Shown here: positions 6,101 through 37,948 of the stretch, piece by piece
Position numbering within the stretch: position 1 is the first letter of the stretch
How the letters are laid out: every line of letters begins with the position of its first letter
From: a virus
Length of the DNA: 37,948 nucleotides
Strand: one strand, 5' to 3'
Virus record (IMG/VR): IMGVR_UViG_3300030104_004863
Span: 1 to 37,948 of that record
Program-made: the position numbers and the translations under genes
Notes under the pieces: model-generated
The model's database searches: none
Told to the model about the DNA's origin: nothing
Seen by the model: the letters and a program-made list of their open reading frames with translations, nothing else

Positions 6101-9100
6101 AGGTATAGAATAGCCTTGAGATTCAGCTATAGCATTTATTTTTTCTTGCACTTCCGGTTGTTTGATAACATCTAGGGTAGCATCAAAAGCGATTTCTTCC
6201 GCTAATGCTTCTGCTAATGTTGTTTTTCTGGCTCCTTTAGTGGATGCACCAACATTGTCACCTATAAAATAATCTACAAACTCTTGTTTTGTAATGCTTT
6301 TCTTTTTAAATATACTATTACCTTGTGCTGTTTTTTCTCTTTTTTGTTTGCCATTTTCGTCAAGAACAGGTTCAGCAAACGGTTTGAATCTTTTATTTAT
6401 AGTTGATTGTGGTAAAATATCATATATTAATTTAAAATTATCATTTAAAAAATTTTCATAAGATTTTTGTTTACCTAAAAATTTTGTAATTACAGGTTTC
6501 AAAAATGTTCTATAATTTTTTTGTAATTGTTTTTTAAATTGTGCAGATGTAATTTCTGGTAACTTAGTGCCAAAGCTTTTAACTACACTATTTTTTACAC
6601 GCTCTACTATATTATCATTTAATTTAAATGATAATCTTAAACTTTTTCTTTCTTGAATATTTTGTTGCGACTCTGTATCATCAGTAGCTTTTTGATCTGT
6701 TTCTGTTACTCCTTTAGCCTCTGTTATATCGGATTTAAATTTAGTATCTAATACTCTATTTGCAGCTTCTATAGCCCTAGATGATAAAAATTTATTTATA
6801 TAAGCCGCTAAAGGGACTCCCGATCCCGGGCTATATGTTTTAACCAAATCAATAACGCCTCTTTGACCAGTTAATATTTCATCAACTAATAAATCAGAAT
6901 TAGTAATAAAGCCAGGCACATCTCTAAATCTTTGCGCCTGTTTATTTGCCATTCCCCTGTATTTTTCTATTATTTCAAAAGCACCACTAAATCCTTTTTC
7001 ATTATATATATCTTGTATTTCATCAGATACTTTTGATTTTTGCATTTCATTTTCTAATGCTCCTATTTCTTTTATAGCATCTTTATCTAAAACACTTAAT
7101 ATCTCTTCGCTTAATTTATTTTCTTTTATACTTTTATCATAAGCTTTCATAAAATTATAAACTCCTTGTCCAGATTTAAAGTCTATATTTTCATATCCTT
7201 TTCCTTTATATAAATTTGTTACCCAATCTTTAATTTGTTCTCCAAAATTTAAATCAAATGAAATTCTATTTTTTACTAAACCTTCAGAAAATACATTCAA
7301 ATATTCAGTATAAAATTCTGTGGTGCCTTCTCTTTTGCCTTGTCTTTTCATTTCACCATCGGTCCATGCTTTCTGTCTAGAGGTCAGGGTATCCCGAAAC
7401 TCTTGTACTATTTTTTCTTGCATGGAAGCATCGCCTACCATAGCATTTAATATTGGGTGTAATACTTCGTGAGAGCCAACCCCTACGGCTCCAAGTTTTA
7501 AAGCAGATTGTTCATTAATTATTATTTGGCCTTTACCAATAAATACACCATTTACGCCACTAGAATCTTTTATAGTTTTACCACTTAATTTTTTAACTAA
7601 TTTATTAAATTCAGATGTAGATTTAGCTACAGTTGTTTTTAAGCCTAATTGTTTTGATGCTATTTCAGCAAAAGTAACATTTTCGCCATATTTTTGTTTT
7701 AAAGCACTATCAAATATTTCGTTATTTCTTTTTGATAATTTATCTATTTCTTTTTTATCGGATTTACTAATATCACTAATATTTTTAGCTTCCCCAATAA
7801 GAGCATTAATAGAGTCTATATTACTAGCATATTCTTGTAAATTGTCCCCTGTAATATTATCTATTGCTAATCTATTTATATTTTGTAATTGTCTAAATTT
7901 TTTAGCAGCTTTTGTGTTTAGCCCTAATAAAACACGGGCTCGCTGATTACCTTCTTTAGTCTTTTTTGCTAAAGCTTTAGCTATTTCTTTTTTTCTTTCA
8001 GCATGCTCTTTTTGAATATTATTTAATTGTTTTTTTACAATACCAGATGTTAACAATCTTTCAGCTCTTTCTTTAAGAACATTATTATTTTGTACAGCGC
8101 TTGCAACTGTTGAAAATCCTCCACCACTAAAAGTACCTATGATACCTTCGTCTATTATACTATAAGCGTCTTTTAATATACTTTTTGTTAATCTACCTTG
8201 TTTAACGCCAGGTATAAGCCCCTGTTGGTCTGTACTGTCAATTTCAAAAAATCCACCACCTTGTGAAAAAACATCGTCAGAATCAAACCAAAGCTTATCA
8301 TTTATTCTAGTTGATATTGCTTGGCCTATTTCTGTTAAACCCTCTTTGCCGGCAATGCCAATAATATCTAAAATTTTATCACTAATACCTTTATTCATCT
8401 GCTTAACAACTTTTTCTACAGACTCTTTTTTGCCTCCTCCTAGCAAATTAGCGCTTCTAAACATTCTTCTTGTTAAATAAGCGTCTGCCATTTCTATACC
8501 TCCAGTTGTTATAGCATTGCCATATAATTGCCAATAAGTTTTATCAGGGTTTTTTCTAACCTCTTCAGTAAATTTATCACCTGCAATACCTATACCTAAA
8601 GCGGCAGCCGTATAAGGATTCATAGAAGCAAGAGTGTAAGGCACGCTGCTTAAGCCATCGGTAACTATTCTTCTAGCTATTTGTTCAATATCTGCATCAG
8701 CCCCTTTTGCAATTTCTTCCGTTATTGTGTTTCCGTATTTAGCTCTTTCCTTTTCAATAACTTCTTTAAAAGGAGCACGCATTTCTTCTATTTCTTTTCT
8801 GCTTGTTAAAAAAGCTGTTGTACCAGTAGGCAATAAAGCTTTTACAAATGCGCCTGCACCATTTGAAAAAAAATCATCTTTTACAGCTATTAAAGCTCTT
8901 GCTATTTCCGCGTCTTTATCTTTTGTTTTGTTTGGTTCTAGCGAAAGAGCAGATGCTTTTGCTATTCCAACTAAATCAATACCACCAAAACTGGAGGCTA
9001 TATTTTTAGCTATTTGCATAGATTTACCAGGAGCTCTTAAGGCAGAAATAGCTCTAGTTGCTATAGATTCTTCTACATCTTTTAAATTATCTAAGGATAT

Positions 9101-9442
9101 TTCTATTGATGCGTCTCCTAATCCAGCTAAACCGGGTATTACACCACCTCTACCACCTCTAAATATTTTTGATCCTATATTTGTAGCGGTTGTAGCAAGA
9201 CTCATAGGCGCTACAATGCTTTTAGCAACTTTAAAAAATGGTGATTCCAAAAAACCATTTTCCGATTTGGATTCCATATCGGGCGCTACAGTTTCCTCCA
9301 CAACCGCACCCGGTGTTGTGGGAGTTTGAAAATCCTGTTGCATGCTTTTTTGCTCTTTAGCATTAGGATATTTTTGTAAAAATAATTCCTTGTCTTTAGG
9401 GTCAACTTCAACAACTTGACCATTTACTATATATTCTAACAT
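3158..9442 (-). CDS. Giant multidomain internal virion protein (ejected, polyvalent type)
   Basis: At 2094 residues this is the largest gene. It is probably packed in the capsid and ejected with the DNA, as inferred from its size, its place last in the virion module and its likeness to giant proteins of marine phages. Visible parts in order: a short N-terminal V-N-G-Q-V-V-E-V-D motif; hydrophobic Ala/Gly-rich stretches at about 65-120 and 260-290; an HExxH zinc-protease motif (H658-E659-V-L-H662) with E713 or E720 as a possible third ligand; a sigma-region-2-like stretch at about 854-895; a conserved helical domain at about 950-1110; a PD-(D/E)xK-like core (D1218, E1235-V-K1237); and a long conserved C-terminal part containing S-R-P-D-R-I-S-M-Q-Q-S-S and a basic tail of I-F-N-K-K repeats. 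Three F-S-(K/R) linkers may be processing sites. Activities are inferred. Confidence 0.8.
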   Translation of the reverse strand: MLEYIVNGQVVEVDPKDKELFLQKYPNAKEQKSMQQDFQTPTTPGAVVEETVAPDMESKSENGFLESPFFKVAKSIVAPMSLATTATNIGSKIFRGGRGGVIPGLAGLGDASIEISLDNLKDVEESIATRAISALRAPGKSMQIAKNIASSFGGIDLVGIAKASALSLEPNKTKDKDAEIARALIAVKDDFFSNGAGAFVKALLPTGTTAFLTSRKEIEEMRAPFKEVIEKERAKYGNTITEEIAKGADADIEQIARRIVTDGLSSVPYTLASMNPYTAAALGIGIAGDKFTEEVRKNPDKTYWQLYGNAITTGGIEMADAYLTRRMFRSANLLGGGKKESVEKVVKQMNKGISDKILDIIGIAGKEGLTEIGQAISTRINDKLWFDSDDVFSQGGGFFEIDSTDQQGLIPGVKQGRLTKSILKDAYSIIDEGIIGTFSGGGFSTVASAVQNNNVLKERAERLLTSGIVKKQLNNIQKEHAERKKEIAKALAKKTKEGNQRARVLLGLNTKAAKKFRQLQNINRLAIDNITGDNLQEYASNIDSINALIGEAKNISDISKSDKKEIDKLSKRNNEIFDSALKQKYGENVTFAEIASKQLGLKTTVAKSTSEFNKLVKKLSGKTIKDSSGVNGVFIGKGQIIINEQSALKLGAVGVGSHEVLHPILNAMVGDASMQEKIVQEFRDTLTSRQKAWTDGEMKRQGKREGTTEFYTEYLNVFSEGLVKNRISFDLNFGEQIKDWVTNLYKGKGYENIDFKSGQGVYNFMKAYDKSIKENKLSEEILSVLDKDAIKEIGALENEMQKSKVSDEIQDIYNEKGFSGAFEIIEKYRGMANKQAQRFRDVPGFITNSDLLVDEILTGQRGVIDLVKTYSPGSGVPLAAYINKFLSSRAIEAANRVLDTKFKSDITEAKGVTETDQKATDDTESQQNIQERKSLRLSFKLNDNIVERVKNSVVKSFGTKLPEITSAQFKKQLQKNYRTFLKPVITKFLGKQKSYENFLNDNFKLIYDILPQSTINKRFKPFAEPVLDENGKQKREKTAQGNSIFKKKSITKQEFVDYFIGDNVGASTKGARKTTLAEALAEEIAFDATLDVIKQPEVQEKINAIAESQGYSIPDNYLSQVAKEIDRGTDFQFSKEDGAEISRLLENLEFEYLESDFSTFWNTFTKLAAKQEIGTKKLKGQAVEYYVAKQLTNLKIPGLKITNLKELSTLATGDTGADIEIEIDKGGTIYKGTVEVKDSIKSKLGSVSFTGPVNNLTIASGVNLTQDVINKIKEEVQENVNKWDEAYKKLTGSYPTNKKGERAFPYEIPRDVDLKKLPVRTTKIIVPGLNPIIDHYNKGDINLMITLDKGAYLMGQNPTDAALDNFSDMNANTLINAGFYSTSSNEKTRTLTFRAYLNIEKASKLLDGKPLSELQFSRENKLDTEFNNIIEQKTGILSEARFSKVKAKRRGMGKGMFNFFIPHSAEDFQGLMYSILPKGKEGNKAMEWMRQNLFRPYGVAMENISRERMALMNNWKALKKNIKDVPKLLPTKTPDGDFTYEQAIRVFIWDKQNIDIPGLTATDKKTLSGYIKNDTELLNFANQLIGINKEHGYPSPGASWDSGTITTDLYESLNKNVRQKHLTKWQSNIDAIFTEENFNKLQAAKGEAYVSALKNILSRMKSGRNAPGGGNKQVNAWLEWLNNSVGAIMFLNVRSAVLQTISTVNYINWHDNNPLKAAKAYANQPQFWKDFSTLFNSDFLKERRGGLKLNVSESEIADQAKEKGVRGAISYLLNKGFVLTRAADSFAIANGGAALYRNRINSYIKQGLSQKEAEEKAFKDFRELTEEAQQSSRPDRISMQQSSALGRVILAFANTPMQYTRLMKRGAQDLAAGRGDWKTNMSKIMYYGFVQNFIFNAMQQALFALGFDDEEDEKKKEKYSSIANGMVDSVLRGTGVGGAAVMTAKNIAVDVAKRAKRSRPNFQDSAWKLLDISPPLDSKVSKLRSAGYVIGKEKDEILDKGLSLDNPANMAIAQTISATTNVPLDRVLRLYDNTKAAVAEDTEAWQRVALLLGWSTWELGMEKEKSKNPKKKKPKSIFNKKQNIFNKKKSKIFN

Positions 9443-9457
9443 AATTTAACTTTTATT

Positions 9458-10951
9458 TTATCTTCCAGCTCTTATGCCAGGAATCATTTTTAATTGTTGT
9501 AAAAATGGAACATCCATTTCAAGCGCTTTTTCTACATTATTTTTTTCTTCAATTTCTCCTGTTTTAGGATTAAATTTAACTGTAGTATTTTTAATTTGTT
9601 TCATAAAATTATCATATGCCTGATCAATATTGAATTGTCCTAATTGTTCAGTAATACCTTGTGATCCACCATAAAATTTTCTTAAATCATTTTTCATTTG
9701 TTGCCCAACAATAAATCGCCACGTTTCTTTGTTCGTAAAATCTATTTCGTATGATTCAGAAACATCCTTATCATTTTCATCTTTAAATTTTTTAGTTATA
9801 ACAATGCTACCAGGTTTTGCGCCATCTTTTATTTCATCCCCGAATTCAAGTTTTTTATCTATAAAATAATTTTTAAGACCGTTAATATCACTGGTGTATG
9901 ATTTATAATCATTTTCTGCAGATTCTAAATTAATTTTATCTTTACTTTGTTTATTAACAGTAGCAGTTATATCTTTTCTATCAAATTCTAAATTTATAAG
10001 TTTATTTTTTATTTCATTAGAAAGAGCATTGTATATTTCTTGGTCTTGTTCTTCAGAGCCTGTATATTCACCCATTACTTTTTCTTTAATGCTATCTTCA
10101 AAATAAGCTGCTTTTTGTTCTTTACTCAATGCGCCTAAAATTAAATCTTTATTAAGATTATCCGCTAAATAAGGATCAATATTTTCAGATTTAATTTTAC
10201 CATATTCAAAAACTTTACCCCCTATGGATCTTCTTTTATAAGTTATAGCTTCATTGCCTTGTTTCGAATTTTTAATATTTGATAATAAGCTATTGGCTAT
10301 AGGGGTGGCATCGAAAGTAAATTTTGTTTGAGGAGTGTATAACCTGCTATCAGATAACAAATTTTTTGCTGAAATGTTTTTTATTTGAAAATCTTTAGGA
10401 TTTTTTGTTGGTAGTGATAAAATAAGACTATCTCCTTTTTCGCCTGCAGACAAAATAAAATTTTCTTTTAATAGCCCGCTTCGGACCATGTTACTAGTAA
10501 AATTATCCGGCCCAAATCTAACATCTTCTAAACTTACTTCTGGATTTTTAGAATTACTAATGTTTTCAATCAAACCTCTGATTCCTTGAGCCTCAAATAA
10601 TATGTTATTATATCCGTCCATTTTACTAGAGTATTCGTCTAAACTTATTCTGCCTAATTTATATTGTTTTACAATATTACCCACATTTTCTTTGAGACTT
10701 GTAATAAATTGTCTATTTTGAGCCGAAGCATTGCCCAGCCGCTCTCGTAATTCTTTTTGATATTTTTCACTAACCATATATGCCTGCTCTTCGGCTGCTT
10801 TTAATTTTTGTTTACCCTTTGCAATTCCTTTTGCAAATTGTATAGCTCCCTGAGCTAAACCCTCTCCTAAACCGCCTTTATATCTTATAGCCGTGGGGCT
10901 TGCATATTGTCCGTAATTATAATTTCCGTATGTTACTTTTGGTAATGCCAT
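9458..10951 (-). CDS. Internal virion / ejection protein, unknown family
   Basis: The 497-residue product starts M-A-L-P-K-V-T-Y-G-N-Y-N-Y-G-Q-Y, then has a Gly/Ala-rich amphipathic stretch (about 27-50) and a long charged coiled-coil-like region to about 130. The rest is mixed and rich in Lys, Asp and Asn with no catalytic motif that I can see. It lies between a small Gln/Ala-rich virion protein and the giant internal protein, the place where short-tailed phages keep internal core proteins that form the ejection channel. That position is the main support for the call. It starts 15 nt downstream of the possible frameshifted end of its upstream neighbour. Confidence 0.55.
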   Translation of the reverse strand: MALPKVTYGNYNYGQYASPTAIRYKGGLGEGLAQGAIQFAKGIAKGKQKLKAAEEQAYMVSEKYQKELRERLGNASAQNRQFITSLKENVGNIVKQYKLGRISLDEYSSKMDGYNNILFEAQGIRGLIENISNSKNPEVSLEDVRFGPDNFTSNMVRSGLLKENFILSAGEKGDSLILSLPTKNPKDFQIKNISAKNLLSDSRLYTPQTKFTFDATPIANSLLSNIKNSKQGNEAITYKRRSIGGKVFEYGKIKSENIDPYLADNLNKDLILGALSKEQKAAYFEDSIKEKVMGEYTGSEEQDQEIYNALSNEIKNKLINLEFDRKDITATVNKQSKDKINLESAENDYKSYTSDINGLKNYFIDKKLEFGDEIKDGAKPGSIVITKKFKDENDKDVSESYEIDFTNKETWRFIVGQQMKNDLRKFYGGSQGITEQLGQFNIDQAYDNFMKQIKNTTVKFNPKTGEIEEKNNVEKALEMDVPFLQQLKMIPGIRAGR

Positions 10952-19879: not shown

Positions 19880-21301
19880 TTAAGAGTCAAATCTGATAAA
19901 GTTGTTAGCAGCTTGAACTACTAAACATCTTTCTGATAGATAGTGTACTTCCATCTTGTCAGTTCCAGAAGCAGTTGCCCCACCTACTGAACCTGTAATC
20001 CAAGTTTTCATTTTTCTATCATCAGCTTCAGAAGCTCTGTATCTTACGTGTAAGAATGGTCTTTTTACATTTTGACCAAGATTTTGATCATACACAGAAG
20101 ATGTACCTGCTGGTACTAATACTCCTTCTAAGCCTCCAACTAATCCTCTAGTAGACTTGTTGTTTAAATATTTCCAGTCAGTTTTGTAGAAGTCATAAGA
20201 ACCTCTTCTAAATCCTGAAAATCCTAAATTTAAAGCCATGTCTTGAGAATTGTTAAATACTCCAAAAGATGTACCACCAGAGAAATTAGCATTTACAGCT
20301 CCTAGCATGTCATCAATACCTATATTTGCAGCTCTATCTAAGAATAACATATTTTCTTCAATAGCACCTTGCTCATCTAAGTTTGCTAACAATGTGTCAA
20401 AACTTGCTAATACCGGATCAGATGCGTCATCAAAAAATCCAGTACCAACAATACCTCTAGAACCAATTGCAGCTAAAAGACCTTCAGATCCTGCGGGAGC
20501 ATTTGTTACACTAGAAAATACGTTACCACCGGCAGATTTTTCAGCCTCAACCATTGCCATTTCTAAATAGTCTTCAAATCTCTTGGCAGTATCTCCTTGA
20601 GATTTTAAGTACCATAAATAACCATTTTGTCCACCTTCTCCAGAAACTTCAACCCACCCTATTTGAGCACTATCAGAACCGCTAATTTCAAAATGATCTT
20701 TAAGGATCATAGGAGCGTTAGTTAGTGACAAAAAGTTTGGCTCTATAGAATCAGTCATAGAATCAGTTCCTTTTTTAAATTCAGAACCGTAAACAAAAAA
20801 CTTTATAGCTGCATTACCAGCAGAAATACCAGATAGGTCATCTACGTGCTCAGCCGCATAAGGTCTAATTGTTAATTGTGATGTTGATGCTTCAGCACCC
20901 GCTGTTACAAGAGCTTTAAATACAACACCTGATACAACAGCTACTACAGTGGCTCCTTTTCTTACAGCGTGAGCTTCAGTTGCGCCTGAATCAATACCTG
21001 TAATTGAAGAAACTACACCCGTTGCTGTAGCACATGTGCCTTCGTAAGCTAAATGTAATCTTCCTTGCTCAGACCAAATAACTTGATCAGAAGCCATAGG
21101 CATTTCAGCGCCTAACATTTGAATGAATCCAGAAATAGATCTGTCTCCATATTTTTCCACCTCAGATTCGTATAACTCAGGTAGATATTGTTGTGCCCAT
21201 CCATTATTTCTTATGTCCAAATAAGAACCAATAGTGGTCATCTTTGATGCAGCTGGAGTGACTAACCCGCCAGTTCCAACCGCGAAACTTGTACTTGCCA
21301 T
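19880..21301 (-). CDS. Major capsid protein
   Basis: The 473-residue product is placed after portal and scaffold genes and has the features of a HK97-fold capsid protein of this phage group. The N-terminus is S-T-S-F-A-V-G-T-G-G-L-V-T-P-A, then S-Y-L-D-I-R-N-N-G-W-A-Q-Q-Y-L-P-E-L-Y-E-S-E. An E-loop-like early part is followed by mixed alpha/beta segments and a C-terminus with Y-L-S-E-R-C-L-V-V-Q-A-A-N-N-F-I-R-F-D-S. Length is normal for the fold. The DNA here looks less AT-rich than its neighbours, common for highly expressed capsid genes. A strong terminator-like hairpin follows. No cleavage site for a prohead protease is obvious. Confidence comes from order and family resemblance. Confidence 0.85.
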   Translation of the reverse strand: MASTSFAVGTGGLVTPAASKMTTIGSYLDIRNNGWAQQYLPELYESEVEKYGDRSISGFIQMLGAEMPMASDQVIWSEQGRLHLAYEGTCATATGVVSSITGIDSGATEAHAVRKGATVVAVVSGVVFKALVTAGAEASTSQLTIRPYAAEHVDDLSGISAGNAAIKFFVYGSEFKKGTDSMTDSIEPNFLSLTNAPMILKDHFEISGSDSAQIGWVEVSGEGGQNGYLWYLKSQGDTAKRFEDYLEMAMVEAEKSAGGNVFSSVTNAPAGSEGLLAAIGSRGIVGTGFFDDASDPVLASFDTLLANLDEQGAIEENMLFLDRAANIGIDDMLGAVNANFSGGTSFGVFNNSQDMALNLGFSGFRRGSYDFYKTDWKYLNNKSTRGLVGGLEGVLVPAGTSSVYDQNLGQNVKRPFLHVRYRASEADDRKMKTWITGSVGGATASGTDKMEVHYLSERCLVVQAANNFIRFDS

Positions 21302-22602: not shown

Positions 22603-25020
22603 TTATCTTGGATCAAATTGCTCTAATCCAAAGCCACCTAAATTATCAAATCCTGCTGATTCAAAATCTTTAGGAGGTGCGCCAGATTTTCTCTGGTCTA
22701 TTAATTCACTTTGCTGTGTAGCTTGAATTTTTGTTCTTTCGTCTTTACGATCTTCTTTATATTTGTCTTTACTTTTAACAACATCTGCTTCAGCTTCTCT
22801 TAATTTCATATTTAACTGAAACTCAAATTCCATTAATTCTTTTTTAATTGCAGCCTCTCTTTCAAGTTTTGCAATATCAAACTGCGATTGTGCTTGCGCT
22901 ATTTGAACTTTGCTTTCAGCAACGCCTTGTTGTTTTTGCATATCAGCCGCTGCCGCTGCTTGCGCCGATTGAGCATTTGATTGAGATTGAGCTTGTATAT
23001 TTTCTAATTGTACTTGTCTATCTCTTTCAAACTTTTGTTTTCTTCTAAGCTTTAATAATTGATTAGCTAATTTTAGATTTTTTATTTCTCTTACATCAAT
23101 AGCATCATCTAATTCAATTTGTTTTTGACCTATGGCTATTTGAATGTTATTTTCTAATACTTGCTTTTCTTCATCATCGGGAGCTAGTTCTAAAAATATA
23201 CCAAAATCATGTATATGTAATTCTGATATTTCTGCTAATGTAGCCATATCAAATTTACCTAATGATTGTATGAAAGATTTTTTAGTATTAGAGTATTCTA
23301 AAACATCTGCAATTCTTAAAGACACTGCTTCAGCTGTTTTCAAAGTTAAAAATAAACCTGCTTGCATTATATGCCTAGTAGCGGTATTACTATTAGCGGC
23401 TGCTAATTTTTGTAAACCAACTAAAGCATTTTTATCAGGAGTACTTCCATCTCTAGCTTCATTTAGCCCGGTCACATCTCTAATCAGCTGCAAATAATAA
23501 TTGTAGCTATTTATTAAACTAGATATTTTTGTATTACCAGCACCGGTTCTTAATTCTTGTATAGGTACTCTACCATTATTAAATTCACCATCTTGAGTCA
23601 TTGATCTACCAATAACACTACCAGTTTGGAAATACATATTTAAAGCCTCTTGCGGATTGTAATTTGTTCCATTACCTAAATCCACTTCAGCAATGCCGTC
23701 CGCATCTAAAAATACCCCGTCAGGAACCATACGAGATAGCACTTGTTGCAATTTAAGATGCGTTATTTGAATCATATCTGCGAAGGAGGTCATTCTACTT
23801 ACTAACGATTCAGGCTTACCTTTATAAATTCTTGGAGCAACAATGTTATAGCTCATCTGAACTTTTGTAATATCAGATTTAGGTCTAGTCATATTCATGG
23901 CTTTTTGCCATTTTAATATTTTTCCAAGACCAACAATTTTTGCGCCTTCATATAAACATTCTATAGATCTATTTACTCTTTCAAATCTAGTTCTAGAATC
24001 CTTAGGCGGGTTAAAAGTATCATCTTTTTTTAATGCTTTTTCAGCGCCCGAAGAAGTTTCTTTTATTTTATAAACTTGATTTTGAAAAGTTTTATATTCA
24101 AAATATAATACATATACATAATTTTTATCTTGATTATCTCCTGAATAAGATTTATTATATAGTTTTGCATTACCAGATCCATAACCTTCAATATCTTCAA
24201 TATCTTCTTGCGTTAATTCTGGAAATTGTTTTTTCAATTCAACTATAGAAATTCTTCTTACTTCTCCTACATAATATATATCATCAAAATATGGTGATTC
24301 AGTGTAAGAGTAAACTAAATCCGATGGATCAACATATTCTAATTTAATCCCTTCAGCCGTATTAAAGCTATTTTTAATGCAACCCATACCTAAAACAGCT
24401 ATATCATAATCAACTCTCTTTTTTAATAAATGATATTTATTTAATTCTAAAACATTATTTATGGCTTGCTCTTGAGCTATTTCAATAGATTGTTTATAAT
24501 TTAACTGCATATGAAGATTTAATTCTTCTTCATTTTCAGGTATATCTTTTTCTTCATTATATAAAGTATTTATACCTAAAGTATCTTTAATTTTTTTAGC
24601 AAAATCCGCAGCATACATGTCATTTAACATATTTTCTACAAACTCTGTTCTTTTTTTACTAGCTATAGGGTCTACAGAAAATGCTTTTAAATCATAAGTT
24701 CTTTCTGAAATACCATTTACTACTATGTCTACAAACTTAGGTATTATTGGCACCGGTTTCCAATCTAAATTTAAATATGATAAATCACCATTTATAGACA
24801 ATTCATCTTTATATTTTTGTATACTTTGTTCGCCTCTTGCATATAATCTTAACCTATGAAAGTTATCTCTATTTGCGAAGTAGCGCATGTTTCCCGAATC
24901 TTTTTTAAACCATTCTGATTCTATAGCCTTAGCGATTTGCAATCCATATTTTGGATCCATTTTCTCATTGTCGCTTACTGCTTGACTCGGAAAAATACCT
25001 TTTGTTAGTACTTGTGCCAT
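22603..25020 (-). CDS. Portal protein
   Basis: The 805-residue product starts right after the terminase stop (TAG then ATG). Its N-terminal part has N-R-D-N-F-H-R-L-R-L-Y-A-R-G-E-Q-S and L-D-W-K-P-V-P-I-I-P-K-F-V-D-I-V-V, typical of large portal proteins from short-tailed Bacteroidetes and marine phages. The middle has V-D-P-S-D-L-V-Y-S-Y-T-E-S-P-Y and the stem/crown region D-V-T-G-L-N-E-A-R-D-G-S-T-P. The last 170 residues form a long Gln/Ala-rich coiled coil (about 650-760), a barrel-like extension into the capsid. The portal ring is the channel for packaging and ejection. The size is normal for this lineage and large compared with siphophages. Confidence 0.88.
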   Translation of the reverse strand: MAQVLTKGIFPSQAVSDNEKMDPKYGLQIAKAIESEWFKKDSGNMRYFANRDNFHRLRLYARGEQSIQKYKDELSINGDLSYLNLDWKPVPIIPKFVDIVVNGISERTYDLKAFSVDPIASKKRTEFVENMLNDMYAADFAKKIKDTLGINTLYNEEKDIPENEEELNLHMQLNYKQSIEIAQEQAINNVLELNKYHLLKKRVDYDIAVLGMGCIKNSFNTAEGIKLEYVDPSDLVYSYTESPYFDDIYYVGEVRRISIVELKKQFPELTQEDIEDIEGYGSGNAKLYNKSYSGDNQDKNYVYVLYFEYKTFQNQVYKIKETSSGAEKALKKDDTFNPPKDSRTRFERVNRSIECLYEGAKIVGLGKILKWQKAMNMTRPKSDITKVQMSYNIVAPRIYKGKPESLVSRMTSFADMIQITHLKLQQVLSRMVPDGVFLDADGIAEVDLGNGTNYNPQEALNMYFQTGSVIGRSMTQDGEFNNGRVPIQELRTGAGNTKISSLINSYNYYLQLIRDVTGLNEARDGSTPDKNALVGLQKLAAANSNTATRHIMQAGLFLTLKTAEAVSLRIADVLEYSNTKKSFIQSLGKFDMATLAEISELHIHDFGIFLELAPDDEEKQVLENNIQIAIGQKQIELDDAIDVREIKNLKLANQLLKLRRKQKFERDRQVQLENIQAQSQSNAQSAQAAAAADMQKQQGVAESKVQIAQAQSQFDIAKLEREAAIKKELMEFEFQLNMKLREAEADVVKSKDKYKEDRKDERTKIQATQQSELIDQRKSGAPPKDFESAGFDNLGGFGLEQFDPR

Positions 25021-27231
25021 CTATTGTATTATTTTTGAAAAATTGCCTTTGTTATCATATTTAGCAAAACTAAAATTTAGTTTATTATTTAATTTATTAA
25101 CAGGTTTTGGTGTATATAAATTTTTATTACAAGCCATAATGGCTAATCCAGAACTTATAGCTGCATCAAATTTAGTTCTTTTATTTATATCAAACTTAGC
25201 CCAATCATTTAATGTTTCATTAAAGTATAAATCACCGTGACTACCGTCATCTTTTATTCCAACATGAAGATTTATATAACTTTCAATTGCAGCCGCATGA
25301 GCTTGTCTTATATCTTCACTTGAGTTAGGTATACCACCTATTTCTTTTTCGGCAGTGGATAATTTATTCCAAACTTTATCGGGTCTATTCATTGAATATC
25401 CCCTATAGCCTCTTCGCTTTAAATAATATAATAATCTAGGTTTATTATTTTCAGCTAATAGTGGCATGCCATAAAATTGAAGAGCCATTAATATATCTTC
25501 AAAAAATATTTCTGCCGTTTGAGGTCTTGCTATATATTCTAAAAAAAATCTATTTGTTGGAACTTCTTCCATACTGAATTTAGTAAGGCCATGTAATGAT
25601 CCTTTAGATCCTTTACCGTCAGTAGTTCCTGATATATCATAACTATCGCAGCCAAATGCACCGATATGTTCATTTCCTGGATATTTATTTCCATTTTTTA
25701 TTATTACTTTATTTTGTAATCCTCTTTTAGGTACCCAACTAACATTAAATCTACCAGTATTGTTAGGTATAAACTCTACTTCTGTATCTTTGATTCCGTT
25801 TTTCCATTGAAAACTGCCACGAGTGACAAGAGCAGAGTATCTAGCTTCTTCATTAAAATCAATCTGTTCGTAAATCTTAGCAAGATTAAATATGCTATTT
25901 TTAGTTTCATCACGGAAAGCGTGTTCTTCAGTTCTCGGAAATTGTCTATAAAATTCATTTAATGCGTCTTGATCTCCTTTTAATCCTTCAACTTCGTTTT
26001 CCCAGTGTTCAATAACTCCCACATCAATAATGTCTCCTTGGTTGTCTTTAGCTGGTTCTTGCGGCGTGTTAAATACAGGTAATCCATTAAAATCAATGAA
26101 TCCCTCGAAGTTCCATTCCATAGGTATGAACAAACTATATAATCCTGAGCGAGTCTGCCCATTGCGGTTTCTTTTTGTAACGTCTGAATCATTATATAGT
26201 TTTTTAAAGTTTTCGCCGCCTTTATCTAATGAGTTGCTTGTTGAACCCATCATACATTTGCCTATAACTCTAGAACCTAATCTTAATGTGGTTTTTGTTA
26301 CACGCCAGTTATTTAAAATATTTTCTGGTCTTTCCCATTTACCCGCTTCATCATGTACTAATAAAGCTAGCTTTTCTCCGTCATAACTATTATCACCTGT
26401 ATTTTTCCAATCAATAGTTGTATCTAATCCAGCAAGCTCTTGTGCTTTTTCATTAGCGATAATTTTTCTTCTTGTAAACTTAGAAGCTGGTACTCTATAA
26501 GCCAATTCTGTTTTAGGCCTATCCATTCCATCTTGTATTGGTTTAAAGAAAAACGGATAGTTAACGGATATAGGTACAACTTTATCGGTAAACATTTTTT
26601 TTGCGTCAGCACCTGATTTTGATAATATACCAAACCTAGAGTCTGAAGAGATGGTTGCTTGGTTAACGGTTTCGGATGATGCCATAAATGAAAAACCACT
26701 TCGTCTGTTTTTAAGGTAACACATTCCGTAACATCTTGAATCTGCTTTGCAAGCTTCCCAGAATATATAGAATAATCTGTTTGCTTCCCTAAAATCTGGT
26801 TTCCCAACATCAATTTTGGTCCACTGCAAGTACATATAATGAGTGCCAGTGATATAAGTATCAACGCCTTTATTTTTAAACCAATAGCCTTGTTCTCTTT
26901 TGGTAAATTCTTCATCTATATATTCGTGCCATTTATTTTGAAAATCTAAAGGTAAATCTTTCCAATCAAAAATACTTTTAATTCTTTTTAAATCTTTTGG
27001 ATATTCTTGAACCTCCCATTTATCATTACCTTTGAAAACATTCTTAGCTTTAGGTAATGCTATTTTTAAATTTTGTATATTATAAATATCTCCTATCTCT
27101 CCGGTTTTACTAATAACAATTATATCGTGTTCTTTATTATAACCGTATTTCCACTTTTTTGATTTATTTAGCCTTTTAATAGTATTTATTTTTACAGGCT
27201 CTATAATCTTATATAAAGTTTGATTATACAT
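25021..27231 (-). CDS. terL: Terminase large subunit
   Basis: The 736-residue product is the packaging ATPase-nuclease. A deviant Walker A lies at K174-N-R-R-S-G-F-S181, with the R-R-x-G-x-S form seen in this terminase branch, and Walker B at L-L-V-H-D294-E295. The C-terminal RNase H-like nuclease has G-C-D529-S-Y-D532-I-S-G as its first acidic site. The N-terminal 120 residues carry F-D-W-K-D-L-P-L-D-F-Q-N-K-W-H-E, probably the small-subunit-binding or lid area. The product is at the long end for the family, as is common in crAss-like and related marine podoviruses. It overlaps the upstream small gene by 1 bp and abuts the portal gene. Confidence 0.9.
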   Translation of the reverse strand: MYNQTLYKIIEPVKINTIKRLNKSKKWKYGYNKEHDIIVISKTGEIGDIYNIQNLKIALPKAKNVFKGNDKWEVQEYPKDLKRIKSIFDWKDLPLDFQNKWHEYIDEEFTKREQGYWFKNKGVDTYITGTHYMYLQWTKIDVGKPDFREANRLFYIFWEACKADSRCYGMCYLKNRRSGFSFMASSETVNQATISSDSRFGILSKSGADAKKMFTDKVVPISVNYPFFFKPIQDGMDRPKTELAYRVPASKFTRRKIIANEKAQELAGLDTTIDWKNTGDNSYDGEKLALLVHDEAGKWERPENILNNWRVTKTTLRLGSRVIGKCMMGSTSNSLDKGGENFKKLYNDSDVTKRNRNGQTRSGLYSLFIPMEWNFEGFIDFNGLPVFNTPQEPAKDNQGDIIDVGVIEHWENEVEGLKGDQDALNEFYRQFPRTEEHAFRDETKNSIFNLAKIYEQIDFNEEARYSALVTRGSFQWKNGIKDTEVEFIPNNTGRFNVSWVPKRGLQNKVIIKNGNKYPGNEHIGAFGCDSYDISGTTDGKGSKGSLHGLTKFSMEEVPTNRFFLEYIARPQTAEIFFEDILMALQFYGMPLLAENNKPRLLYYLKRRGYRGYSMNRPDKVWNKLSTAEKEIGGIPNSSEDIRQAHAAAIESYINLHVGIKDDGSHGDLYFNETLNDWAKFDINKRTKFDAAISSGLAIMACNKNLYTPKPVNKLNNKLNFSFAKYDNKGNFSKIIQ

Positions 27232-27503
27232 TATTTAGATCTTCTTTCTGCAAACCCTTTAAAAGTATCTACTTTTTTTTCTAATGGTTTGTTTTCTAAT
27301 AAAGCTTTTTCTTCTTCTATGCGATTAAGTATTTCAAAAGCATCAAATATTGCAAGCTTTTTTGTGGCTGCTGCATTCTTTAATCTATCAGCAGAAACAT
27401 CGTCGTCAGTTTCAACAATAGGCTCTTTAGCTACTTTTATTAATTCATTAACTGCTCTTTGCCCAGCCTGGATTATATTCTTTTTCGTTTCCTTGACGTT
27501 CAT
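27231..27503 (-). CDS. Possible terminase small subunit
   Basis: The 90-residue product is helical: M-N-V-K-E-T-K-K-N-I-I-Q-A-G-Q-R-A-V-N-E-L, then an acidic loop (V-E-T-D-D-D-V), then D-R-L-K-N-A-A-A-T-K-K-L-A-I-F-D-A-F-E-I-L and a basic end. It lies immediately before the large terminase with a 1-bp overlap, the usual place of the small subunit, and I recall similar short proteins there in marine phages. It is shorter than most small terminases and has no clear HTH, so the role is inferred from position. Its start overlaps the end of the GroES-like gene by 56 bp; no later ATG would preserve the helical N-terminus. Confidence 0.55.
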   Translation of the reverse strand: MNVKETKKNIIQAGQRAVNELIKVAKEPIVETDDDVSADRLKNAAATKKLAIFDAFEILNRIEEEKALLENKPLEKKVDTFKGFAERRSK

Positions 27504-28047
27504 ACTTAATAGTTATAAATTTGCTTAAAACTCTATATAGTCTTTCATTATCAATAATAAATTCATATTTACTACTAGGTGCAAATCCAACTAAATCATT
27601 TTTTTTAATATCATCAAGGTCTTTATCAATATATTTTATAATTCCTTTAAAGGGAACTTCTTTTTCATTTAATAATATATTATTAGATATAATTGGTTTT
27701 ACAAAACAATAGCCTTTTAAAGAATGCCATTTATTATTTCTTTTGTATAAAAATATTTGATCTGTATTTACAAAATATTTATCCTCTTTATAATAGCTTC
27801 TGCTATTTTTTTCTTTGCCTCTTCCGTCATACCATCTTCTAAAAATATTATGATGTACTATTACTTCATCACCTATTTTTATTTCTGTTTGTTCTGCCTT
27901 AGGCACTGCCGTCACTATTCCAATACGACTAATATACCGATGGTCAGATATTTCTGTATTTAACAACAGCTCTTTACCATCAATATATTTTTTATTATCG
28001 TATCTTTCGTTTTTAGGTTTAACTATAAAGCTAAATAAACTTTGCAT
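27448..28047 (-). CDS. Two-domain GroES-like protein
   Basis: The 199-residue product appears to hold two GroES-like beta barrels. The first (about 41-100) has R-I-G-I-V-T-A-V-P...I-K-I-G-D-E-V-I-V-H-H-N-I-F-R and ends F-V-N-T-D-Q-I-F-L-Y. The second (about 112-180) has F-K-G-I-I-K-Y-I-D...I-K-K-N-D-L-V-G-F-A and Y-E-F-I-I-D-N-E-R-L-Y-R-V, echoing the GroES pattern G-x-V...G-D-x-V-x-F...I-D-x-E-x-x-x-x-V. A long charged insert (71-90) follows the first GD-V motif. It is distinct from the short GroES at 35541-35798. It sits just upstream of the terminase genes, so it may serve packaging or head assembly rather than being a plain cochaperonin. The fold call is by motif only. Confidence 0.65.
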   Translation of the reverse strand: MQSLFSFIVKPKNERYDNKKYIDGKELLLNTEISDHRYISRIGIVTAVPKAEQTEIKIGDEVIVHHNIFRRWYDGRGKEKNSRSYYKEDKYFVNTDQIFLYKRNNKWHSLKGYCFVKPIISNNILLNEKEVPFKGIIKYIDKDLDDIKKNDLVGFAPSSKYEFIIDNERLYRVLSKFITIKYERQGNEKEYNPGWAKSS

Positions 28048-28265
28048 TAATATTCTAAATTATATTCAACTGCTATAGCCATATTTTTATTGAAATCCTT
28101 CCATGGTAATACTTCTTTTCCTTTTTTAATATAAATAGAAAATTTTTCAGACTCTTCAATAATATCGCATATCTTATGCCCGCCATATACTTCTTGGCCT
28201 ACGGCATAGTGCATAGCGTCATTTTTATAGTCTCTACCTATACTAATTTTTCTTACCAATGACAT
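28047..28265 (-). CDS. Small conserved phage protein
   Basis: The 72-residue product begins M-S-L-V-R-K-I-S-I-G-R-D-Y-K-N-D-A-M-H-Y-A-V-G-Q and has I-Y-I-K-K-G-K-E-V-L-P-W-K-D-F. I recognise this as a small single-domain protein common near the terminase in marine Bacteroidetes-type phages; its role is unknown. The likely fold is a short beta barrel. It overlaps the GroES-like gene by 1 bp (TAATG), so the two are probably translated together. Confidence 0.7.
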   Translation of the reverse strand: MSLVRKISIGRDYKNDAMHYAVGQEVYGGHKICDIIEESEKFSIYIKKGKEVLPWKDFNKNMAIAVEYNLEY

Positions 28266-35103: not shown

Positions 35104-35544
35104 TTAACGATTTTTATCTTTAATCATATCATCTATAGCTTTATTATAAACTTTATCTGTATATGATTTATTTTTATAAAACTTACTTCTTTCGCTTGTT
35201 GGTAAATCTTCTTCAGCTAACATTATTCTATATATTCTAGAAATTAACTGTGAACATTTAAAAGAAGTTTTATATATACTATATTTAATTGTAGTTCGAT
35301 TGCGATGTCTCCATACGTCTATCCAACCTTGTTTTCTTAATCTTTCCCATCTGTTTTTATCCCATGAATACGTATAAGTACCATCTATAAAATCATTACG
35401 TGTAAATCTTTTTTTACAATCAAGATATATTAGCAGCTCAAGATCAGCGTCATTTAGGCTATAAGTTTTACAGGCCCATTTACGAATGAGCCTATAATAT
35501 TTTAATAAATTTAAATCCCGTATGTCAATAGCGCTTAGCTTCAT
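35104..35544 (-). CDS. Winged-helix-like conserved phage protein
   Basis: The 146-residue product has L-L-K-Y-Y-R-L-I-R-K-W-A-C-K-T-Y, then L-N-D-A-D-L-E-L-L-I-Y-L-D, a wing-like segment T-Y-T-Y-S-W-D-K-N-R-W-E-R-L-R-K and W-R-H-R-N-R-T-T-I-K-Y. The A-D-L-E-L-L-I-Y-L start and R-L-R-K-Q-G-W-I-D-V-W-R wing resemble MarR-type winged helices, and I recall this protein as conserved in marine Bacteroidetes phages. It may be a DNA-binding late regulator or a structural adaptor; the sequence cannot decide. It overlaps groES by 4 bp, so all three are likely co-translated. Confidence 0.65.
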   Translation of the reverse strand: MKLSAIDIRDLNLLKYYRLIRKWACKTYSLNDADLELLIYLDCKKRFTRNDFIDGTYTYSWDKNRWERLRKQGWIDVWRHRNRTTIKYSIYKTSFKCSQLISRIYRIMLAEEDLPTSERSKFYKNKSYTDKVYNKAIDDMIKDKNR

Positions 35545-35798
35545 TCCACTAAAACTATATCACCGAGTTTTAATACATAATATAATTTTTCATTACATTC
35601 AACACCGTGACCCGCGTGTTTGTCGTAATAAACTATATCATTTTCTTTTAACATATCTGCTAAATGCCCAGCAGAAATAACTTTACCTTTTAAATATCTA
35701 ACATCAGTATTTTGATCTTCTGTTAATTCAAGTCCAGCAATTTTCTTAGGCTCTTCTTTTATTTTTTCTACAACGACAAAGTAATTAATTGCTTTCAT
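35541..35798 (-). CDS. groES: Cochaperonin GroES
   Basis: The 85-residue product shows the GroES barrel: an N-terminal strand Y-F-V-V-V-E-K-I-K-E-E, a mobile loop with K-K-I-A-G-L-E-L-T-E (equivalent of G-G-I-V-L), then K-G-K-V-I-S-A-G, N-D-I-V-Y-Y-D-K-H-A-G-H-G-V, and the closing V-L-K-L-G-D-I-V-L-V. The hydrophobic L-E-L would contact the GroEL apical domain. It is about ten residues shorter than bacterial GroES, with the roof loop reduced. Its start overlaps the groEL end by 14 bp, so the pair is coupled, but in the order groEL then groES, opposite to bacteria. It presumably caps the phage GroEL next door; use with the host chaperonin is also possible. Confidence 0.85.
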   Translation of the reverse strand: MKAINYFVVVEKIKEEPKKIAGLELTEDQNTDVRYLKGKVISAGHLADMLKENDIVYYDKHAGHGVECNEKLYYVLKLGDIVLVE

Positions 35799-37347
35799 AA
35801 TCTCTTACATTATTAATTACACAATCAGCAGAAAATATTGTATTAACAACACTAACTGCATTTTTTAAAGCCGTTTTAGTTACTAGTACTGGATCAATAA
35901 TTCCAGCCTTAACCATATTTACTTCTTTATTATTTACAACATCGATTCCAAATCCACGTTTTTTAGATTCTACATACTCTAAAGCCGCATTATCTAATAT
36001 AGTTGCATATGGCGATTTTATTGCTTCTAATAATATTTCTTCATATTCGTTTTCAGGTGCAATAGAAAAAGCTGCATCTAATAGTGCAACACCTCCACCG
36101 GCAACAATACCCTCTTGTAATGCTGCTTTTGTAGCATATATTGCGTCTTCAACTCTATCTTTTTTTTCTTTCATTTCAACTTTAGAATCAGCACCAACTT
36201 TTATCATTGCTACTTGGCCATTTAACATAGCTAATCTTTCTTGAAGTCTTTTCTTAAAGTAAGGATTTTTTTCTTCTTTTATTTGTTTTTCTACTACCTC
36301 TATTCTTTCATTTAAAACAACACCTTGATCTATTGTTTGCAATACGGTGTGGTTATCATCAGTTACTGATTGAATAGCATTACCTAAAACATCGGGTGAT
36401 ATTAAATCTAAATCATCACCTAATTCTTCATTTATAACTTTAGCCCCGGTAAGTATCGCAAGATCTTCAATAGTATTTTGTTTAGTTGGACCAAATCCAG
36501 GCAAATCTACAACATTTACTTTAATATTACCTTTGACTTTATTTGCTAGCAATGCCGCCATAGGTTGTTGTTCTACGCCTGCTATGATCAACAGACTTCT
36601 TTTTGATTTTATTACAAACTCCAAAACACTTTGTATTTTACGGATATTAGGTATTGGCGAAGATACTATGAGTACGTACGGATTTTCTAGCACTGCTTTA
36701 CCTTTATCCTTGTCTGTCATAAAATGTGGCGATTTGAGTCCGCAATCTATTCGTGTGCCCTCTACGAATTTAACGTATGTGTCTGGGGTCTCAGACTCTT
36801 CCATAAGGACGACACCATCCTTACCTACCTTTGAATAAGCTTGCGATATGACTTTACCTAAAGCTTTATCATTATTACAACTAATTTCTGCAACGCTTTG
36901 CAGCATTCCATCCTTTACTTCAACTGCTTTTTTATCAAGATATTTATTTACTTTTTCAAGCCCTGATAATATACCTTCTTTAATAGGCCTTACAGTTTGA
37001 GCGTATTTTTTTTCATTAGCTAAATGCAATAATGAATGAGCGAGAACGGTTGCTGTTGTGGTTCCGTCCCCCGCTTCTTTTACTGTGTTTCTAGCCGCTT
37101 CTTTAATTAAAGTTGCACCTATATTTTCAACCGGATCATATAAGACTACGGATTCTGCTACCGTTACACCATCTTTTGTAATCACCGGTTTACCTAACGC
37201 GTCTTCATATATGACGCATTTTCCTGAAGCACCTAGCGTAGATTTAACTGCATTAGTTAATTTATCTACGCCGTGCATTATTTTTTCTCTAGCGTTTATC
37301 CCGAAGGATAAATCTTTTACTATCTCACTTGGGTTATGATATTCCAT
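35785..37347 (-). CDS. groEL: Chaperonin GroEL (phage-encoded)
   Basis: The 520-residue product covers equatorial, intermediate and apical domains. ATP-site residues are kept: I-T-K-D59-G-V-T-V, E-A-G-D94-G-T-T-T-A-T, R-V-E-D401-A and A-G-G-G419. The apical domain aligns throughout, but substrate/GroES-contact positions differ from E. coli: Y199 and Y203 correspond to L204 and H208, L234 to Q239, and V264 to A268. The C-terminal Gly-Gly-Met tail is missing; the protein ends V-R-D-Y-E-S-N. The protein should form a folding ring, perhaps tuned to capsid or fibre proteins, as chaperonins are for several phage heads. It follows the 102-residue gene by 24 bp and overlaps groES by 14 bp. Base usage matches its neighbours, so acquisition is not recent. 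Confidence 0.95.
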   Translation of the reverse strand: MEYHNPSEIVKDLSFGINAREKIMHGVDKLTNAVKSTLGASGKCVIYEDALGKPVITKDGVTVAESVVLYDPVENIGATLIKEAARNTVKEAGDGTTTATVLAHSLLHLANEKKYAQTVRPIKEGILSGLEKVNKYLDKKAVEVKDGMLQSVAEISCNNDKALGKVISQAYSKVGKDGVVLMEESETPDTYVKFVEGTRIDCGLKSPHFMTDKDKGKAVLENPYVLIVSSPIPNIRKIQSVLEFVIKSKRSLLIIAGVEQQPMAALLANKVKGNIKVNVVDLPGFGPTKQNTIEDLAILTGAKVINEELGDDLDLISPDVLGNAIQSVTDDNHTVLQTIDQGVVLNERIEVVEKQIKEEKNPYFKKRLQERLAMLNGQVAMIKVGADSKVEMKEKKDRVEDAIYATKAALQEGIVAGGGVALLDAAFSIAPENEYEEILLEAIKSPYATILDNAALEYVESKKRGFGIDVVNNKEVNMVKAGIIDPVLVTKTALKNAVSVVNTIFSADCVINNVRDYESN

Positions 37348-37715: not shown

Positions 37716-37948
37716 TTAATTATTTTCTAATATTTCTATTCTAGCTTTTAAACTATCGTTATTTGCTTTAAGTTCTTGTATTGATTTAATTAATGGTGCT
37801 ATTAGCGCTTGATAATTAACCCCCTCGACTTGTAAACCTTTAGATTCATCTTCCATATCAATTTGAGAATATGTAACAAACCTATTATCAATCATATCTT
37901 CAGCAATTAATCCAACACTTTCCGCATCATCTTCTTTCATTTTAAACT
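37716..37948 (-). CDS. Tail fibre 3' end with S74 chaperone domain, truncated by window
   Basis: The frame stays open to the right edge, so the true start lies outside the window; the internal ATG at 37940 should not be taken as the start. The visible 77 residues are the second half of an S74 intramolecular chaperone: V-G-L-I-A-E-D-M-I, then G-V-N-Y-Q-A-L-I-A-P-L-I-K-S-I-Q-E-L-K and a terminal coiled coil (L-K-A-R-I-E-I-L-E). The S-D-x-R-x-K cleavage site would lie just outside. It is the second S74 fibre in this genome and differs in sequence from the one at 28942-32064, so they are not recent duplicates. Confidence 0.8.
   Translation of the reverse strand, partial: FKMKEDDAESVGLIAEDMIDNRFVTYSQIDMEDESKGLQVEGVNYQALIAPLIKSIQELKANNDSLKARIEILENN

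What the first reader, a model, noticed from the sequence alone, without database searches (positions are those of the whole stretch)
35541..37347. Phage groEL-groES pair in reverse order
The virus carries its own full-length GroEL and a short GroES, overlapping by 14 bp. Cellular operons run groES then groEL; this one runs groEL then groES, with a coupled winged-helix-like gene after. Phage-encoded GroEL is known but uncommon, and a paired GroES next to it is rarer. It suggests a self-sufficient folding machine for late virion proteins.
Basis: partly seen in the sequence, partly recalled or inferred. Interest (0 to 1): 0.75.

Follow-up and report, generated by a model that had tools for sequence, protein, structure and literature searches.

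The report
Phage chaperonin with two GroES lids

Summary
In detail: groEL (35785-37347, minus strand, 520 aa) and groES (35541-35798, 85 aa) overlap by 14 bp, in the order groEL then groES, followed after a 4-bp overlap by a MarR-like winged-helix gene. "Uncommon" is wrong. At least 598 IMG/VR contigs encode relatives, all 160 groEL loci examined have groES downstream, and Flavobacterium Elemovirus isolates show the same order. Marine et al. 2017 had already linked viral GroEL/GroES gene order to GroEL phylogeny (from memory; paper not held).

The pair is an old phage lineage, not a recent capture: nearest cellular GroEL 44% identity, phage clade outside the sampled bacteria. Catalytic residues are intact. 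The E. coli-type inter-ring contacts, allosteric salt bridges and GGM tail are lost. GroES keeps its mobile loop but lacks the roof hairpin, like T4 gp31.

Its AlphaFold model best matches chloroplast Cpn20 over its whole length. It co-occurs with groEL in 31 of 31 large contigs. Most likely the phage runs its own chaperonin with two lid types to fold late virion proteins. Partnership, substrates and ring number are inference.

The parts
35785..37347 (-). groEL: group I chaperonin subunit, 520 aa, phage-specific lineage
   Evidence: Pfam PF00118 E=2.3e-48, phrog_5725 E=2.5e-133; ATP-site residues conserved in 77/77 family members
35541..35798 (-). groES: single-domain co-chaperonin, 85 aa, mobile loop kept, roof hairpin absent
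   Evidence: Pfam PF00166 33.4 bits vs cut-off 21.1; loop and roof counted over 133 relatives
35785..35798 (-). 14-bp groEL/groES overlap
   Evidence: ORF coordinates; overlapping or very closely spaced in nearly all relatives
35104..35544 (-). 146-aa MarR-like winged-helix protein, 4-bp overlap with groES
   Evidence: AlphaFold pLDDT 87.3; Foldseek best hits MarR family; found in 79 of 80 relatives' loci
27448..28047 (-). tandem-domain (Cpn20-like) co-chaperonin, 199 aa
   Evidence: phrog_13932 'co-chaperonin GroES' E=1.8e-19; AlphaFold pLDDT 85.7; Foldseek best PDB hit 7ekq_R (Cpn20) E=3.8e-5 over about the whole length
28047..28265 (-). 72-aa conserved ORF directly upstream of the tandem co-chaperonin
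   Evidence: same position in all 80 tandem-gene loci; function unknown
27231..27503 (-). 90-aa ORF between tandem co-chaperonin and terminase
   Evidence: same position in all 80 loci; function unknown
25021..27231 (-). terminase large subunit (context)
   Evidence: phrog_6681 E=1.1e-165
22603..25020 (-). portal protein (context)
   Evidence: phrog_6547 E=3.3e-156
19880..21301 (-). virion structural protein, 473 aa, likely major capsid and candidate chaperonin substrate
   Evidence: phrog_13704 virion structural protein E=1.3e-95; capsid identity and substrate role inferred from position

Best explanation
The phage encodes a complete group I chaperonin system of its own, transcribed with its late genes. 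GroEL subunits form a ring, bind unfolded phage proteins at the apical domains and hydrolyse ATP. The 85-aa GroES caps the ring through its mobile loop (Gly-hydrophobic-x-hydrophobic-Thr); having no roof hairpin, it leaves a wider dome, as T4 gp31 does. A second, Cpn20-like co-chaperonin with two fused GroES folds, made from the head/packaging gene block, is a second lid type for the same GroEL, alone or mixed with the single-domain GroES, and most likely serves head or packaging proteins such as the 473-aa capsid candidate. Shown: gene content, order, conservation, homology, intact ATPase residues, the tandem fold by prediction. Inferred: ring assembly (possibly single rings), the lid partnership, the substrates.
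For: Homology. ATP-site residues D52, D87, T89-T91, D398, D495 identical in 77/77 relatives. GroES mobile-loop hydrophobics at E. coli I25 and L27 kept in 133/133; roof residues 48-55 missing in 133/133. gp31 also lacks the roof loops and folds the 56-kDa gp23 (PMC6318259). The apical groove is altered consistently in the family: L234 is Gln in 76/77, Y199 and Y203 are mostly Leu and His, as expected of a GroEL matched to its own lid. Tandem gene: PHROG GroES family in 48/48 members; AlphaFold pLDDT 85.7, pTM 0.79; best PDB fold match chloroplast Cpn20, then 7ekq_Q and GroES/Cpn10 chains; relatives phi18:3 gp096 and phi38:1 gp089 hit Pfam Cpn10 above cut-off in domain 2. Co-occurrence: 31/31 contigs of 50 kb or more carry one GroEL and one tandem gene, with small GroES in all. 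All 77 annotated records with the tandem gene belong to host groups matching the groEL hits record for record in number. GroEL of phi38:1, which has the same three-gene set, was detected by mass spectrometry in infected cells and in virion preparations (PMC13288928).
Against: No biochemical data for any of the three proteins. The tandem protein's first domain is GroES-like mainly by fold; its sequence support is weak, and the window copy alone gives no Pfam or PDB sequence hit. Whole-length TM-score to Cpn20 is only 0.53 (rmsd 6.5 A, domains differ in orientation). phi18:3 has both co-chaperonin genes but no detectable GroEL, so these lids need not depend on a phage GroEL.
Confidence: 0.68

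Rival explanations
1. The groEL/groES pair is a functional phage chaperonin, but the terminase-adjacent tandem protein has been co-opted for something else, e.g. a packaging or head-assembly factor (in the place of a small terminase) or an adaptor for another ring such as ClpP.
For: Fixed neighbourhood 72-aa ORF / tandem gene / 90-aa ORF / terminase in 80/80 loci, and next to the terminase in phi38:1, elemo, Panino, MW202828 and phi18:3. It lies apart from groEL (about 5-16 kb). The Cpn20 chain matched, 7ekq, comes from a ClpP complex. In Panino, elemo and phi38:1 no 90-aa gene separates it from the terminase.
Against: A loop in domain 1 ([LF]-[IL]-L-N-T-E, residues 27-32) is among the most conserved stretches, as expected of a mobile loop that docks on GroEL. 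In phi18:3 virion proteomics labels many structural proteins in the record but not gp096. It always co-occurs with a small GroES.
Confidence: 0.25
2. The phage GroEL does not replace host GroEL but joins it, or the two phage co-chaperonins mainly steer the host GroEL (gp31-like) while the phage GroEL has a narrower job.
For: phi18:3 carries both co-chaperonins without a GroEL. Several phages carry only GroES (PMC7185714).
Against: Apical groove and inter-subunit salt-bridge residues of the phage GroEL differ from bacterial ones (R197 and E386 mostly replaced, D83 and K327 lost in 77/77), arguing against mixed rings with host GroEL. groEL and groES are adjacent and usually overlapping in all relatives.
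Confidence: 0.25
3. Recent capture of a host operon, rearranged on entry.
For: Bacteroidota GroELs are the closest cellular ones.
Against: Best cellular identity 44% against 55-89% among phages. The family is one side of a branch (SH-aLRT 99) outside all sampled bacteria, unlike Vibrio, Bacteroides and MT835992 phage GroELs, which fall inside bacterial clades.
Confidence: 0.03

Closest known systems
Elemovirus groEL-groES pair (Flavobacterium phages elemoA-F, e.g. NC_062741)
   Same: groEL then groES, overlapping; a 180-aa GroES-annotated gene beside the terminase; 60-kb podovirus
   Different: GroEL only about 35% identical; different gene neighbourhood around the pair
Viral chaperonins of Marine et al. 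2017 (virioplankton)
   Same: divergent viral GroEL/GroES, widespread in seawater; gene order linked to phylogeny (abstract from memory, paper not held)
   Different: whether the tandem gene was noticed there could not be checked
Callevirus phi38:1 (Pervagoviridae)
   Same: GroEL, single-domain Cpn10 and terminase-adjacent 194-aa co-chaperonin in one genome; GroEL seen by mass spectrometry (PMC13288928)
   Different: order groES, small gene, groEL, among replication genes
Chloroplast Cpn20 (with Cpn10)
   Same: [quoted passage not shown] best fold match
   Different: no sequence similarity detectable in the window copy; viral; probably independent fusion; function untested
T4 gp31
   Same: phage co-chaperonin with mobile loop and no roof (PMC6318259)
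   Different: gp31 works with host GroEL and has a longer mobile loop; here a cognate phage GroEL is encoded
Phage EL / OBP / AR9 chaperonins
   Same: phage-encoded GroEL homologues, some single-ring
   Different: reported as working without a co-chaperonin (PMC5934643); EL shares only 22% identity with GroEL (PMC7185714)

Membership tests
Group I chaperonin (GroEL/Cpn60) | Cpn60 profile over the full length | tested here: met
   PF00118 165.5 bits, profile 1-488 of 490
Group I chaperonin (GroEL/Cpn60) | ATP-binding and catalytic residues | tested here: met
   D52, D87, T89-91, D398, D495 equivalents present, 77/77 relatives
Group I chaperonin (GroEL/Cpn60) | partner GroES encoded or used | tested here: met
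   groES overlaps groEL; 160/160 relatives; physical partnership untested
Group I chaperonin (GroEL/Cpn60) | double heptameric ring with bacterial-type inter-ring contacts | tested here: inconclusive
   contact residues R452, A109, S463, V464 replaced and a nearby segment deleted; ring number itself not testable
GroES/Cpn10 | Cpn10 domain | tested here: met
   PF00166 33.4 bits vs 21.1
GroES/Cpn10 | mobile loop with hydrophobic tripeptide | tested here: met
   positions 25 and 27 hydrophobic in 133/133; middle position often Glu
GroES/Cpn10 | roof hairpin (a GroES feature, absent in gp31) | tested here: not met
   E. coli residues 48-55 missing in 133/133; this argues for a gp31-like dome, not against Cpn10 membership
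Cpn20 (tandem co-chaperonin) | two GroES-like domains head to tail | tested here: met
   by predicted fold; by sequence only partly: domain 2 in phi18:3 and phi38:1 above Pfam cut-off, domain 1 weak
Cpn20 (tandem co-chaperonin) | common descent with plastid Cpn20 | tested here: not met
   no sequence hit to Cpn20 for window protein or profile; filed as Cpn20-like in build only
Cpn20 (tandem co-chaperonin) | acts as lid on a Cpn60 ring | not testable with these tools
   needs biochemistry
Phage EL-type co-chaperonin-independent chaperonin | no GroES partner | tested here: not met
   adjacent groES plus second co-chaperonin gene
MarR-family regulator | MarR winged-helix fold | tested here: inconclusive
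   Foldseek prob 1.00 but E 0.008, TM about 0.45; no Pfam hit; DNA binding untested

The most novel reading that the evidence does not exclude
A large lineage of Bacteroidota podoviruses runs a divergent GroEL, possibly as single rings, closed by mixed lids built from single-domain and tandem GroES subunits, a viral counterpart of the chloroplast Cpn10/Cpn20 lid that arose independently and is dedicated to capsid or packaging proteins.
Probability: 0.3. Interest if true: 0.72.

Novelty: new variant of a known kind. Interest (0 to 1): 0.5.

Why it matters
Phage GroEL/GroES pairs are known, and their reversed order is shared by a whole lineage. What stands out is a small (about 60-kb) phage keeping three chaperonin genes: a GroEL, a roofless GroES and a two-domain GroES. 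Tandem co-chaperonins raise the question, still debated for chloroplasts, of how an even number of lid domains fits a seven-fold ring. A phage system with cultured relatives (phi38:1, Elemovirus, Panino), one of which (phi18:3) lacks GroEL, makes this testable by gene deletion and reconstitution. It also offers a natural series from host-GroEL-dependent lids to a phage-owned machine.

Tried and rejected
Rarity of the pair: rejected by IMG/VR scans. Recent host capture: rejected by identity and tree. Sequence search of the 85-aa GroES in annotated phages by single-sequence tblastn found nothing, although annotation and profiles show homologues; a sensitivity failure. Pfam and PDB sequence searches of the tandem protein were negative; the fold search and relatives decided it. 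Profile comparison of the tandem protein's domain 1 alone with bacterial GroES failed; a comparison with a more diverse alignment matched domain 2 (E 5.6e-7). Rfam search of the region: nothing. Promoter and terminator scan: near chance level. Literature searches for tandem GroES in phages found none, in open-licence papers only; Marine et al. 2017 was not held. Considered and dropped: co-evolution of the GroEL and GroES trees, because shared descent would give the same signal.

Full report
OBSERVATION. The window is bases 1-37948 of a 59,280-base IMG/VR virus record. On the minus strand lie groEL (35785-37347, 520 aa), groES (35541-35798, 85 aa, 14-bp overlap) and a 146-aa ORF (35104-35544, 4-bp overlap). 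Pfam and PHROGs name the first two Cpn60/GroEL and Cpn10/GroES, well above cut-offs. The 146-aa protein has no family hit, but its confident AlphaFold model (pLDDT 87.3) matches MarR-type regulators best.

HOW COMMON. In the 80 best loci, 68-89% identical, every one has groES next to groEL in the same order. With a second, profile-based scan the count is 160 of 160 loci (some contigs occur in both scans). Among 80 cellular loci, GroES was found in 75, always upstream of groEL. Isolates with groEL then groES exist: Flavobacterium phages of genus Elemovirus, MW202828, and Maribacter phage Panino, where groES was annotated hypothetical. Phages phi38:1 and immuto have groES upstream. Marine et al. 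2017 (ISME J, 10.1038/ismej.2017.102) reported prevalent viral chaperonins and, as I recall its abstract, gene order linked to GroEL phylogeny; the paper was not held. PMC7185714 cites it for phages with both genes.

ORIGIN. The best cellular GroEL is 44% identical (Zobellia). In a 75-row tree the window's family is one side of a branch (SH-aLRT 99), next to Elemovirus, MW202828 and Panino (94). phi38:1 and Calle_1 join only weakly. All sampled bacteria lie elsewhere. GroELs of Vibrio, Bacteroides and MT835992 phages fall inside bacterial clades, so the method does detect captures. Long branches are flagged and the root is only a midpoint. A GroES tree was not built. The groEL gene's G+C is 34%, the window's 32%.

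ANATOMY OF GROEL. Compared with E. coli numbering over 77 relatives and 62 bacteria: the ATP-site residues are identical in 77/77. R452, a ring-ring contact kept as Arg in 56/62 bacteria, is Ala here and varied in the family. A109 (Ala in 58/62 bacteria), S463 and V464 are replaced, and a segment just after them is missing. The intra-ring bridges that hold E. coli GroEL in its resting state (D83-K327, R197-E386) are gone in most or all. Apical L234 is Gln in 76/77. The Gly-Gly-Met tail is absent in 77/77. From established knowledge of single-ring mutants and mitochondrial Hsp60, loss of these contacts makes a single-ring or loosely paired machine plausible; that is inference.

ANATOMY OF GROES. 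In 133 distinct relatives the mobile loop keeps hydrophobic residues at positions equivalent to I25 and L27, while the middle residue is often Glu. The roof hairpin (E. coli 48-55) is missing in all. T4 gp31 also lacks the roof loops, which is thought to let it fold the 56-kDa capsid protein gp23 (PMC6318259).

THE SECOND CO-CHAPERONIN. PHROG annotation of the rest of the window found a further GroES-family gene, 27448-28047, 199 aa, upstream of the terminase (E=1.8e-19). All 48 aligned members hit the same family. The AlphaFold model (pLDDT 85.7, pTM 0.79) shows two beta-rich domains. Its best PDB match is 7ekq chain R, E=3.8e-5 over about 206 columns; one search names that sequence as the Cpn20 co-chaperonin subunit. 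Then come 7ekq chain Q and GroES/Cpn10 chains. [quoted passage not shown]). Viral fold matches include phi18:3 'chaperonin cpn10'. By sequence, domain 2 of the phi18:3 and phi38:1 homologues passes the Pfam Cpn10 cut-off; domain 1 gives only weak hits. Domain 1 has a strongly conserved [LF]-[IL]-L-N-T-E stretch at 27-32, a candidate GroEL-binding loop. RefSeq labels some relatives 'co-chaperonin GroES', so the family is not new; I found no paper describing its tandem nature in phages.

CO-OCCURRENCE. The gene sits between a 72-aa and a 90-aa ORF before the terminase in 80/80 loci, and beside or just before the terminase in Elemovirus, phi38:1, Panino, MW202828 and phi18:3. All 31 contigs of 50 kb or more tested carry one GroEL and one tandem gene. 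Of these, 27 were chosen for groEL and 4 for the tandem gene; the small GroES is present in all. Among annotated phages, the 77 tandem-gene records (68 BAL314, 7 Cellulophaga, Panino, MW202828) match in number the groEL hits of the same hosts. phi18:3 carries a small GroES and a tandem one but no GroEL by profile search of the whole genome. So in that lineage both lids presumably serve the host GroEL.

CONTEXT AND HOST. The minus-strand block runs tail fibre, groEL, groES, MarR-like gene, holin, fibres, tandem co-chaperonin, terminase, portal, likely capsid: the late region. Start codons lack Shine-Dalgarno sequences and have A/T-rich leaders. With cultured relatives on Flavobacterium, Cellulophaga and Maribacter, a Flavobacteriia host is likely but unproven.

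MECHANISM AND VERDICT. Most likely: a phage-owned chaperonin with two kinds of lid for late virion proteins. GroEL of phi38:1, with the same three genes, is made during infection and also detected in virion preparations (PMC13288928), which shows expression in a relative. Not shown: ring assembly, lid binding, substrates. The pair alone is known biology. The tandem lid next to it makes a new variant of a known kind, interest 0.5.

Noticed in passing
27448-28047 (-): Second, tandem-domain GroES-like gene beside the terminase, outside the given coordinates; became the main result.
   Followed up: yes
NC_021794 (phi18:3), L422 7459-8061 and L424 31108-31362: Relative with both a small and a tandem GroES but no GroEL in the complete genome: a natural test of whether the lids can use host GroEL.
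   Followed up: partly
37716-37946 and L082 43-3855: Tail fibre ends in a sequence like the C-terminal parts of known tail spikes and fibres. The gene looks split by a run of N just beyond the window end, so the two ORFs are probably one protein.
   Followed up: no
L082 10945-11709 (+): 254-aa protein with weak sigma-70 region 2 and region 4 matches, below Pfam cut-offs: a possible phage sigma factor in the early strand, which could switch on the late block.
   Followed up: partly
3158-9442 (-): 2094-aa protein in the virion gene block with no Pfam or PHROG hit.
   Followed up: no
9458-10951 (-): 497-aa protein among virion genes with a weak methyltransferase-like match, below cut-off.
   Followed up: no
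L168 3982-4248 (Maribacter phage Panino): Annotated hypothetical, but a GroES homologue (29% identity) just after groEL and a 44-aa ORF, the same order as in the window.
   Followed up: yes
27231-27503 and 28047-28265 (-): 90-aa and 72-aa ORFs flanking the tandem co-chaperonin, invariant in position in 80 of 80 loci, functions unknown; the 90-aa one is a candidate small terminase by position only.
   Followed up: no
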